39,250 nt of DNA, taken from assembly GCA_031279555.1 (NCBI GenBank), contig JAITIK010000053.1, positions 1 through 39,250 on the forward strand. Direction: 5' to 3'. The position numbers and the translations under genes were made by a program. Positions 19,128 to 22,101 of the stretch are shown here, piece by piece; position 1 is the first letter of the stretch, and each line of letters starts with the position of its first letter. Under the pieces are notes generated by a model. It did not search any database. It was not told the origin of the DNA and worked only from the letters and a program-made list of their open reading frames with translations. Source of the DNA: Treponema sp. (lineage in GTDB: Bacteria; Spirochaetota; Spirochaetia; Treponematales; Breznakiellaceae).

Positions 19128-19418
19128 CGTGCCTCCTATCTTATATAATAAGAAAATTTCGGGGATAAGGCAAGTATATCGGCGCATATAGAGGCGATAG
19201 TCCCCTTGCGGGACATTCCGGCGCGTCATTCTTTTGAAAACAGCGCAATCAACGGAATATGTTCCCCGCCCTTCTTCAGTGATTTCCATGCCGTTTACAA
19301 GGCGTGTCACTCTGACGGCGCGCCTGTCAGTATGCCATCGTGTACACGGTTGACCAAGCACGGTAAAACCATTCTCCACGCCGCAAAGCCCCTCGCCTTC
19401 CAATTTCTTGTTGAAGGG

Positions 19419-19465
19419 GGCGCATCCTCTACGCCTCCCGCGTTTTCACATCCAACTTTGATGAA
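19419..19465 (-). repeat. Dispersed 47-nt repeat, copy 1
   Basis: ggcgcatcctctacgcctcccgcgttttcacatccaactttgatgaa, 42/47 identical by eye to 21217-21263. Minus strand encodes FIKVGCENAGGVEDAP. Confidence 0.75.
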
Positions 19466-19655
19466 AAATATCCGTACAACGTTTTGTTATGTTGTCCCCA
19501 TAATCCCTTACTTGACTCCCATGAAAAAACTTCATAGGGCGGCATTATATGTACCGTTCCGGCTGTATGTGACATTTGAGCGGCGCTATAAAAACCTGTA
19601 GGATTTCGCGCCGGCCAATGGGCGGCGAAACATACATTCCTATTGCGCCGTTACA

Positions 19656-20523
19656 TTATATCCACATGGATGCATCTCCCAATTTTGAAGAATAGTATTT
19701 ACGGGCCGCCCTATATGAAAGTCCGCGATAATACAGTGAATTTAAGAATGTTTTGATTTCATCAGGATCAAGAACTGTGATTTTTGAAAGGCGTTCAATA
19801 GCCTGCGCCAGATTCTCAATCGCGGCGTCATATTCTTTACCATGGTAATATGCAATTCCAAGATTGCTATACGCTTTAACATATTCGGGATTGAGCGCAA
19901 GCGCCGCTTTATAATCCTCTATTGCTAATGCGTATTCAGCTTTAGCGGCGTGCGCCAGTCCGCGATTGCTATAGGCAATAATAACGTTCGCTGACGAACC
20001 GCCGCTCTCTATTGCTTTTGTAACTTCAGCTAAGCCATTGTTCAGTTGTAAATGGATCAATTTCAAAGGCTTTTTTTAAATCTATTTCAGCCAATCTTTC
20101 TTCACCCAATGCGATATACGCCTTGCGCCGAAACAAATAGACTTCATAATCTGTAGGATCAATCTTGATAGCGCGGCTGAAATCTTCTATCGCCAATTTA
20201 TAATCCTGCATGTCATCATAGACGTTTCCCCGGTTAATATATCCTTGAACTGCACATGGATTAATCTTTACACACATAGAGGCATCGCTGATGGCTAAAT
20301 CATAATTCTTTTCGTGTCTATAAACGCCTCCACGATTACTGTACGCTTCAAAAGAAAACGGATTGAGTTGTATTGCCTTTGTGAAATCATCTTTCGCTTT
20401 ATCAAAATCACCATTGGACTCATAGAGCAGGCCGCGATAAATATAGAGCTTATAGTTATTGGGATCGCCATCGATCATTTTCGTATAGTCGCCAATCGTC
20501 AAATTTTCCCGCCTGATTTCCAT
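19656..20523 (-). pseudogene. TPR-repeat protein split by an apparent frameshift (ORFs 20026..20523 and 19656..20066)
   Basis: First ORF has TPR motifs ('AYSNRGGVYRHEKNYDLAISDA', 'GYINRGNVYDDMQDYKLAIEDFSRAIKIDP') and stops at ...FTTEQWLS. The overlapping ORF resumes TPRs in another frame (LAEVTKAIES...AYSNRGLAHAAKAEYALAIEDYKAALALNP). Confidence 0.7.
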
Positions 20524-20603
20524 AAAACCATTCCTTATTGTATTACTGAAACTAAAGGGGGCCGCTCTTGTTTTTGGACAGCCCTCCGGTGTTCCTCACG
20601 TAT

Positions 20604-21008
20604 TTAATCTACCGCTTTTACTACCGTACCGGTAACGGTAACTGTTCCCGGCATCCATATCCCTCCGGTTATCGCGGTAAGAAACCACTGTATCGGATTC
20701 GAGCCGTATTTGATTTTTACATCTATCGCTCCGTCGCCGCCAAATTTTTTGATGTTTTTTTCAATCGCCTCTCTTACTTCCGGATCGGTTGCGTTTGATG
20801 AAAGGTTGAACAACGTTCCTCCATTGGTTCCCCAGCCGAGGAATTTATTTGTCCACTCTTTTTCGGAGAAATCTCCGACTTTTTCATACTTTTGACCGTT
20901 GAGAACCAGTCCCGATTGAAGTCCCGATGCTTGAAATGTGGTACACCCGGCCAGTTCAAATACCAGCGCCGCCGCCAGCATTCCCAACCAAATTTTTTTG
21001 TTTGCCAT
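20604..21008 (-). CDS. Small predicted lipoprotein
   Basis: Signal peptide with lipobox 'MANKKIWLGMLAAALVFELAGC'. SD AAGGAG. Confidence 0.75.
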   Translation of the reverse strand: MANKKIWLGMLAAALVFELAGCTTFQASGLQSGLVLNGQKYEKVGDFSEKEWTNKFLGWGTNGGTLFNLSSNATDPEVREAIEKNIKKFGGDGAIDVKIKYGSNPIQWFLTAITGGIWMPGTVTVTGTVVKAVD

Positions 21009-21086
21009 TTTTTTCTCCTTACTTTGGCAACAAAGTTTTAGTTATACGTTGAAATTCATAAAACCGTTATTTAAGGGTGTTCCGTA

Positions 21087-21108
21087 GCGGCGGCACGGAT
21101 GCCGCCGC
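21087..21108. other. GC-rich intergenic hairpin, 9-bp perfect stem, 4-nt loop
   Basis: GCGGCGGCA-CGGA-TGCCGCCGC. No U-run follows. Confidence 0.65.
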
Positions 21109-21216
21109 CCCCGTAAATTTCAAATCTTATGGCGCATAACCTTTTTATACGCGATTTCTGTGCGTACACCAACCGTATATCTAACCGCCCATACGGGCAA
21201 GTTCCCTTTTGTTAGA

Positions 21217-21263
21217 GGCGCATCCTCTACGCCCCCTGCGCTTTCACTTCCAACCTTGATGAA
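21217..21263 (-). repeat. Dispersed 47-nt repeat, copy 2
   Basis: ggcgcatcctctacgccccctgcgctttcacttccaaccttgatgaa. Minus strand encodes FIKVGSESAGGVEDAP. Confidence 0.75.
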
Positions 21264-21296
21264 GTCTCGCGCAATTTTTTACTTTTCCTTGCCGGA

Positions 21297-21660
21297 TCAC
21301 GCGCGCGCCACAGGCGTAGACAGAACAAAGGGGCTTTCGATGACACGCAGATTCTTCAGCGGCGTATTGCTCACTCCGCTGTATTGCGTCTTGATCTCAA
21401 CCTTGTTCGCTCCGGCGTCCAACGCGGACGTCACCCTTATCAGCTTTGACACCGAGTTCTCCGCCACCTTTATCTTGGGCTATGCTGAACAGTCAGCCGG
21501 GTGTAAGCGTCTCATTCACCGCTTCCGCGCTTACGTCCACAAACTCGTCAATGTAGCCCTGCGCGTTAGCCACGCCTTCCACTTCCACAACGATACGCTC
21601 CGCGAGAACGCGTAAAGGAGCGCGAGTGCGAAAGCGGAAGGTTACGTTGATGGGCGCCAT
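21297..21660 (-). pseudogene. Degenerate small gene: MAPINVTFRFRTRAPLRVLAERIVVEVEGVANAQGYIDEFVDVSAEAVNETLTP // IKVAENSVSKLIRVTSALDAGANKVEIKTQYSGVSNTPLKNLRVIESPFVLSTPVARA*
   Basis: Two coding-quality segments in different frames, separated by a short stretch with stops in all three frames. SD AAAGGAG before the ATG at 21660. Confidence 0.65.
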
Positions 21661-21712
21661 AAAAGACTCCTTTTAGGACGGCTTGAGACATCCGCTACGC
21701 GGGAACATCTAT

Positions 21713-21752
21713 AAAAAAAGCCGGTTGTCCCGTATTGGGATTCCGGCGTTTT
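21713..21752 (-). terminator. Intrinsic terminator (minus strand; possibly bidirectional)
   Basis: Minus strand GCCGG-AATCCC-AATAC-GGGACAA-CCGGC-TTTTTTT. Plus strand also ends CCGGCGTTTTTC. Confidence 0.75.
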
Positions 21753-21853
21753 TCTTTGAGAATAACTCATGTCCAAAGAATACATAAAGAGAACGGCTTT
21801 TAGTAAGGATACAGGCGGTTTATAATGATTATTTACAGTATATAACTTAAGAC

Positions 21854-21868
21854 GGGGGGGGGGGGGGG
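21854..21868. repeat. 15-nt homopolymer poly(G) (poly(C) on the minus strand)
   Basis: gac-GGGGGGGGGGGGGGG-ctc. Confidence 0.85.
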
Positions 21869-21890
21869 CTCTTGTCGATCCGCAGGCAAT

Positions 21891-21919
21891 CGGATAAAGC
21901 GACACATTCTCTTTATCCG
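21891..21919. other. Hairpin, 9-bp perfect stem, 11-nt loop
   Basis: CGGATAAAG-cgacacattct-CTTTATCCG. Confidence 0.7.
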
Positions 21920-22006
21920 CGTTTTTATTGGAGATTCTACTATAGCCGGATGTCAAGCGATCACTCACTTTTTTATTAAAACTCCCACTCGGATATTTTT
22001 AATGAA

Positions 22007-22035
22007 AGTATATAGGTTTCATAGCCGCTTGTCAA
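22007..22035 (-). promoter_or_regulatory. Strong sigma70-type promoter
   Basis: Minus strand TTGACA-N17-TATACT. Confidence 0.7.
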
Positions 22036-22101
22036 GCCATGCTTTAAAAATTTAGAAAATTAATCCCGCAAAGACTTCTTTATGCGCCGTCCGCCAGGAC
22101 T

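What the first reader, a model, noticed from the sequence alone, without database searches (positions are those of the whole stretch)
21713..22035. Promoter - hairpin - poly(C)15 - intrinsic terminator: candidate small RNA or phase-variable attenuated leader
On the minus strand a near-consensus promoter (TTGACA-N17-TATACT) is followed by a 9-bp hairpin (21891-21919), a 15-nt poly(C) tract (21854-21868) and a strong terminator (21713-21752), all before the SD/ATG of the degenerate gene. This would make a ~290-nt terminated RNA or a leader with conditional readthrough. Homopolymeric G tracts modulate expression in treponemes (tpr genes), so length variation here could switch RNA structure.
Basis: partly seen in the sequence, partly recalled or inferred. 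Interest (0 to 1): 0.7.

Follow-up and report, generated by a model that had tools for sequence, protein, structure and literature searches.

The report
Poly-C frame-switched leader attenuator family
A run of 15 C's in a bacterial gene leader sits inside a short translated reading frame, so gaining or losing one C should decide whether ribosomes run through a built-in transcription stop signal and reach the next gene; about 100 related leaders in one spirochete genus suggest a genome-wide random switchboard, mostly for surface proteins.

Summary
The anatomy is real: promoter, hairpin, C15 and terminator lie where stated. A GTG-started ORF (21968-21642) runs through hairpin, tract and terminator and ends just inside the next gene, but only at C12/15/18. 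At C13/14/16/17 it stops 4 or 18 nt after the tract, about 90-100 nt before the terminator. This is the layout of the proven Streptococcus gallolyticus pil1 switch (frame-variable leader peptide plus attenuator).

It is one of a family: about 100 matches in all 12 genomes of the genus (70 distinct with a recognisable tract), before different lipoprotein, DUF4469 and unknown genes. In 22 of 42 testable copies the long frame reaches the downstream start (2.95 expected); terminator-like hairpins are enriched (26/66 versus 5.3). The genome holds 89 C-tracts of 11 or more, clustered at 14-16; congeners hold 20-174 of 12 or more, other families of the order 0-6. A closed genome of the same family has two leader-like copies (C17, C20).

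The window copy precedes a decayed DUF4469 gene, so it may be a relic. The small-RNA reading has no support here. No expression or read-level data were available; slippage and switching are inferred.

The parts
22007..22035 (-). sigma-70-type promoter TTGACA-N17-TATACT
   Evidence: 11/12 match; 52 of 64 family members have a promoter of at least 10/12 in the 230 nt upstream, against 3.6% of random stretches
21966..21986 (-). GGGAG Shine-Dalgarno-like site (21986-21982) and GTG start codon (21968-21966) of the leader ORF
   Evidence: sequence; the family shows AAAGGAG at similar spacing before ATG/GTG
21642..21968 (-). leader ORF, 108 codons at C15; crosses hairpin, tract and terminator and ends inside the start of the next gene
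21945..21957 (-). partial second copy of the promoter unit (CTTGACATCCGGC), a tandem duplication also seen in G005
   Evidence: sequence
21891..21919 (-). 9-bp hairpin upstream of the tract, inside the leader ORF
   Evidence: role unclear
21854..21868 (-). C15 tract, predicted switch; encodes poly-proline in any frame
21812..21867 (-). family signature (end of tract and post-tract sequence) matched by model R1
   Evidence: E = 1.3e-7
21713..21747 (-). intrinsic terminator, predicted attenuator; same layout in G005 and twice in closed genome G082
   Evidence: z = -3.98; homologues
21339..21660 (-). decayed DUF4469 gene (SD 21674-21667, ATG 21660): premature stop, frame change, no HU domain
19175..22100 (.). 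segment holding leader, DUF4469 remnant, lipoprotein-like gene (20604-21008) and TPR gene; absent from three congeners, where its flanks are adjacent

Best explanation
This is a phase-variable, translation-dependent attenuator leader, a probably decaying member of a dispersed family. RNA polymerase starts from 22035-22007; ribosomes start at GTG 21968 and translate through the C-tract. When slipped-strand mispairing leaves the tract at 0 mod 3 (C15 as assembled) the ribosome goes on through the terminator at 21747-21713, keeps its hairpin open and ends at the start of the downstream gene, allowing read-through and coupled initiation (ON). At other lengths it stops 4 or 18 nt after the tract, the terminator about 90-100 nt further on can form, and transcription ends after about 290 nt (OFF). 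Shown: anatomy, frame logic, the family, enrichment of read-through frames and of terminator-like hairpins. Inferred: slippage in cells, transcription, termination and the effect on expression.
For: Frame table of the window ORF. Terminator z = -3.98, with the same layout after homologous tracts in G005 and in two loci of closed genome G082, with different stem bases. About 100 leader matches in 12/12 genomes of the genus, 70 distinct with a tract. In 22 of 42 leaders the long frame reaches the downstream gene start, 2.95 expected from dinucleotide shuffles, often with an ATGA overlap. Terminator-like hairpins in 26/66 against 5.3 expected. Median open length after the tract is 9, 30 and 253 nt for the three frames. 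Mixed states, 11 long-frame and 32 not. Two near-identical leaders in G002 have C15 and C16. The same mechanism is proven for S. gallolyticus pil1 (PMC3894217).
Against: No transcript, protein or read-level length data. The downstream gene of this copy is broken. The peptide shows no codon-position signal. In 20 of 42 family members the long frame ends before the called gene. Family members are related, so the chance figures are optimistic. The start is GTG with a long SD spacing.
Confidence: 0.65

Rival explanations
1. Relic: the family works elsewhere, but this copy is a non-functional remnant carried in an inserted segment with a broken DUF4469 gene.
For: Premature stop, frame change and lost HU domain downstream; G005 homologue also broken; low family score (E = 1.3e-7).
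Against: Promoter 11/12, intact C15, open long frame and a strong terminator are all kept; a lipoprotein-like gene with its own SD lies 650 nt further and might be the target.
Confidence: 0.35
2. Free-standing small RNA of about 290 nt whose C15 pairs with poly-G stretches of other mRNAs, as RepG of Helicobacter pylori does with the tlpB leader.
For: Promoter and terminator would give such an RNA in the OFF state; the genome holds many C/G tracts; RepG precedent (PMC8295292).
Against: The C-tract is inside an ORF and not in the terminator loop as in RepG; no Rfam match; other family members are gene leaders.
Confidence: 0.07
3. The leader ORF itself is the product: a phase-variable small protein.
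For: Shared peptide pattern Y-L-x-L-T-S-Y-T-x-x-K-x-N-N-H-Y-T-x-K-P after the poly-proline.
Against: Equal substitution at the three codon positions (0.47, 0.51, 0.49); lengths and C-termini differ widely.
Confidence: 0.07
4. Assembly or sequencing artefact: the C-runs are not real.
For: Some tracts at contig ends lie in G/C-rich junk; contigs often end at tracts.
Against: The window tract is about 17 kb from the nearest contig end; tracts sit at the same point of homologous leaders in separately assembled genomes; a closed single-contig genome has 14 tracts, two of them leader-like.
Confidence: 0.03

Closest known systems
Streptococcus gallolyticus pil1/pil3 phase-variable leader-peptide attenuator (Danne et al. 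2014, PMC3894217)
   Same: Promoter, leader ORF with RBS, simple repeat inside that ORF, stem-loop terminator before the gene; indels change the frame so that the ribosome either stops short of the terminator or covers it.
   Different: Repeat is C15, not GCAGA; different phylum; about 100 dispersed copies in one genus before unrelated genes; the long frame often runs on to the gene start. Not tested experimentally here. No homology claimed.
Treponema pallidum tpr poly-G tracts
   Same: Homopolymeric C/G tract upstream of a gene in a treponeme; proposed phase variation.
   Different: From general knowledge those tracts act close to the promoter; here the tract is 138 nt past the -10 box and inside an ORF.
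Classic homopolymer phase-variable genes (Campylobacter, Helicobacter, Neisseria)
   Same: Frame switching by tract length; other tracts of this genome look like this, e.g. just after lipoprotein signal peptides (L052, L067, L091).
   Different: In the leader family the switched ORF is usually separate from, and upstream of, the gene; a few members are fused in frame (L182, L132).
Helicobacter pylori RepG sRNA and the tlpB poly-G leader (PMC8295292)
   Same: Homopolymer in an mRNA leader affects expression after transcription.
   Different: RepG is a trans-acting sRNA pairing through its terminator loop; here the tract is not in the loop and no target was shown.

Membership tests
pil1-type phase-variable leader attenuator (works like) | Simple repeat inside a leader ORF with its own ribosome binding site | tested here: met
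   C15 inside ORF 21968-21642 behind GGGAG; 43 tract-bearing members have a callable start
pil1-type phase-variable leader attenuator (works like) | Terminator between the repeat and the gene | tested here: met
   z = -3.98 at 21747-21713; enriched in the family
pil1-type phase-variable leader attenuator (works like) | Repeat number decides whether the ribosome reaches the terminator | tested here: met
   in silico only: C12/15/18 cross it, other lengths stop at +4 or +18
pil1-type phase-variable leader attenuator (works like) | Repeat length varies within a population | not testable with these tools
   needs reads; only paralogue evidence, C15 against C16
pil1-type phase-variable leader attenuator (works like) | Gene expression depends on leader translation and on the terminator | not testable with these tools
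   needs reporters
tpr-type promoter poly-G switch | Tract within or next to the promoter | tested here: not met
   tract starts 138 nt downstream of the -10 box
Classic in-gene homopolymer switch | Tract lies inside the coding frame of the main gene | tested here: not met
   separate leader ORF, overlapping the gene start by about 19 nt in another frame
RepG-type sRNA | Homopolymer-pairing C/U-rich terminator loop | tested here: not met
   C15 is about 106 nt upstream of the terminator
Described RNA family (Rfam) | Match at gathering score | tested here: not met
Leader family defined here (model R1) | Match to tract plus post-tract sequence | tested here: met
   window E = 1.3e-7; the window copy was one of the 13 sequences used to build the model, but the independent DNA search links it to G005, G007 and G004

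The most novel reading that the evidence does not exclude
A single phase-variable attenuator leader has been copied in front of dozens of unrelated, mostly surface-protein genes, so that each cell of these spirochetes draws a random ON/OFF pattern over a large array of independently switching operons, with C15 as a maintained set-point length.
Probability: 0.4. Interest if true: 0.82.

Novelty: new variant of a known kind. Interest (0 to 1): 0.63.

Why it matters
Phase variation through a leader peptide and attenuation is described for two pilus loci of one Streptococcus (PMC3894217). Here the same logic appears as a dispersed family across an uncultured spirochete genus that also carries an unusually large set of C-tracts clustered at 14-16 nt. 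If it works, bacteria other than the usual pathogens use massive random switching of surface genes, and a leader module can be spread to new genes. Tract length in metagenome reads would then be a direct readout of switching in nature.

Tried and rejected
Free-standing sRNA: no Rfam match and no strong overall fold. Conserved RNA structure of the post-tract region: RNAalifold gave no consensus structure on the 68-member alignment, which is very gappy, so this is weak evidence. Coding selection on the leader peptide: no third-position excess. Loss of mismatch repair as cause of the tracts: MutS domain I is present in all 12 genomes of the genus; MutL was not checked. Artefact: rejected for internal tracts, suspected for G-rich contig ends. 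Naming the organism through genome contigs: the machine gave no answer three times. Literature on poly-C tracts or phase variation in termite-gut treponemes: nothing found. Matches of the model in G132 and G022 looked unconvincing on inspection.

Full report
OBSERVATION. All elements were found at the stated coordinates on the minus strand: TTGACA-N17-TATACT (22035-22007), a 9-bp hairpin (21919-21891), C15 (21868-21854), a terminator (21747-21713, z = -3.98) and an SD/ATG at 21674-21658. The distance from promoter to terminator fits the claimed RNA of about 290 nt. The leader as a whole is not unusually structured (z = -1.56).

WHAT WAS MISSED. An ORF starts at GTG 21968 behind a GGGAG and passes through hairpin and tract. 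I recomputed it for tract lengths 12-18. At C12, C15 and C18 it is 107-109 aa long, crosses the terminator (5' arm at +106 after the tract) and its stop begins at +209, 16 nt beyond the A of the next gene's ATG (+193). At C13/C16 it stops at +4 and at C14/C17 at +18, leaving about 90-100 nt of untranslated RNA before the terminator. As assembled (C15) the locus is in the long frame.

THE GENE DOWNSTREAM. It matches the DUF4469 protein found downstream of another leader (L077), but has a premature stop, a frame change and no N-terminal HU domain. The homologue in G005 is also broken. The 2.9-kb segment 19175-22100 that holds the leader, this remnant, a 134-aa lipoprotein-like gene and a TPR gene is absent from three congeners, where the flanking genes are adjacent and 87-91% identical. 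So this copy was gained at this site or lost in the others, and it may be decaying.

A FAMILY. A DNA search of relatives found pieces of the same leader elsewhere in the genus. The genome has 89 C-tracts of at least 11. Run lengths in 522 kb around them are bimodal: 12, 2, 2, 4, 4, 3, 5, 20, 41, 12 and 3 for lengths 7 to 17, while A/T runs stop at 9. About eleven tracts in this genome share promoter, SD, start codon, tract and post-tract sequence. A sequence-only model of tract plus post-tract (R1) found about 100 matches in 12 of 12 genomes of the genus and a few in four other genera of the family; of these G135 and G082 look convincing and G132 and G022 do not. Seventy distinct loci keep a recognisable tract.

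WHAT THE FAMILY SHOWS. (a) 52 of 64 have a promoter of at least 10/12 in the 230 nt upstream, median -35 start 131 nt before the tract, against 3.6% of random stretches. (b) After the tract the three frames stay open for a median of 9, 30 and 253 nt. (c) Where a downstream gene could be called (42 leaders), the long frame reaches its start in 22; dinucleotide shuffles of the same spacers give 2.95. The commonest geometry is an ATGA overlap of leader stop and gene start; part of that is expected because ATG is so often followed by AAA. (d) Terminator-like hairpins lie 25-185 nt after the tract in 26 of 66 leaders against 5.3 expected. (e) Current states are mixed, 11 in the long frame and 32 not, not far from what random frames would give. 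(f) Two near-identical leaders in G002 have C15 and C16. The members are related to each other, so all chance values are optimistic, and the gene finder and terminator scorer were simple scripts of my own.

WHAT THE FAMILY DOES NOT SHOW. Substitutions are spread evenly over codon positions (0.47, 0.51, 0.49), so the peptide sequence is not visibly selected; what seems kept is an open frame across the leader and early stops in the other two. In 20 of 42 leaders the long frame ends before the called gene.

REALITY OF THE TRACTS. Some tracts at contig ends lie in G/C-rich junk and are probably artefacts. Internal ones are hard to explain that way: they occupy the same point in homologous leaders of separately assembled genomes, and a closed single-contig genome of the same family (G082, 4,059,867 bp; by its size probably the cultured termite-gut strain Treponema primitia ZAS-2, from memory and unchecked) has 14 tracts of at least 12, including two leader-like loci with C17 and C20, each followed by a terminator of the same layout as in the window but with different stem bases. 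Tract counts (at least 12) are 85 here, 20-174 in the 11 congeners, 0-135 in other genera of the family and 0-6 in the other families searched. MutS is present.

MECHANISM. Best supported is ribosome-dependent attenuation switched by reading frame, with translational coupling in many members. The precedent is S. gallolyticus pil1/pil3, where GCAGA-repeat indels lengthen a leader peptide so that the ribosome opens a premature terminator; there it was proven by mutating the start codon and the terminator and by sequencing variants (PMC3894217). Here anatomy and frame logic are shown; slippage, transcription and termination are inferred.

VERDICT. Observation confirmed; the attenuated-leader reading is supported and extended, the small-RNA reading is not. 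The single locus is probably a decaying copy; the interest lies in the family and the genome-wide set of tracts. I file it as a new variant of a known kind: it works like the pil1 switch, with no claim of descent from it.

Noticed in passing
Genome G000, 89 places; L048-L121: Most C-tracts are outside the leader family: some just after lipoprotein signal peptides (L052, L067, L091), some near start codons (L056, L069, L120), some as G-runs inside long ORFs (L117, L059, L088). Only crude ORF contexts were computed.
   Followed up: partly
window 21183-21202 (-): Motif ACTTGCCCGTATGGGCGGTT, three copies in this genome, all within about 0.7 kb downstream of a leader (C39, C117, C145); found in 10 of 12 genomes of the genus and one other genome. 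Function unknown.
   Followed up: partly
L049, L105, L159, L162, between leader and gene: Spacer hairpins of the form CCAAAGCCGGC...GCCGGCTTTGGAGG that could pair over the gene's Shine-Dalgarno sequence; seen by eye, not tested.
   Followed up: no
L110, L127, L132, L150, L153, L161, L182, downstream genes: A recurring family of about 220-aa proteins (MKGHDFIPQ.D.AF..WSRNF) of unknown function follows many leaders; no Pfam match.
   Followed up: partly
L140, L141, L161, L166, L182, leader ORFs: Several leader ORFs contain degenerate short tandem peptide repeats (e.g. GAIAGAKGAIASADDT) between tract and gene.
   Followed up: no
Contig ends C23, C83, C89, C120, C204 of G000: G/C-homopolymer-rich junk at contig ends that looks like read or assembly artefact; such tracts should be left out of counts.
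   Followed up: no
window 19175-22100: Lineage-specific 2.9-kb segment between a 400-aa ORF and a ClpP-like gene that are adjacent in G002, G003 and G004.
   Followed up: partly
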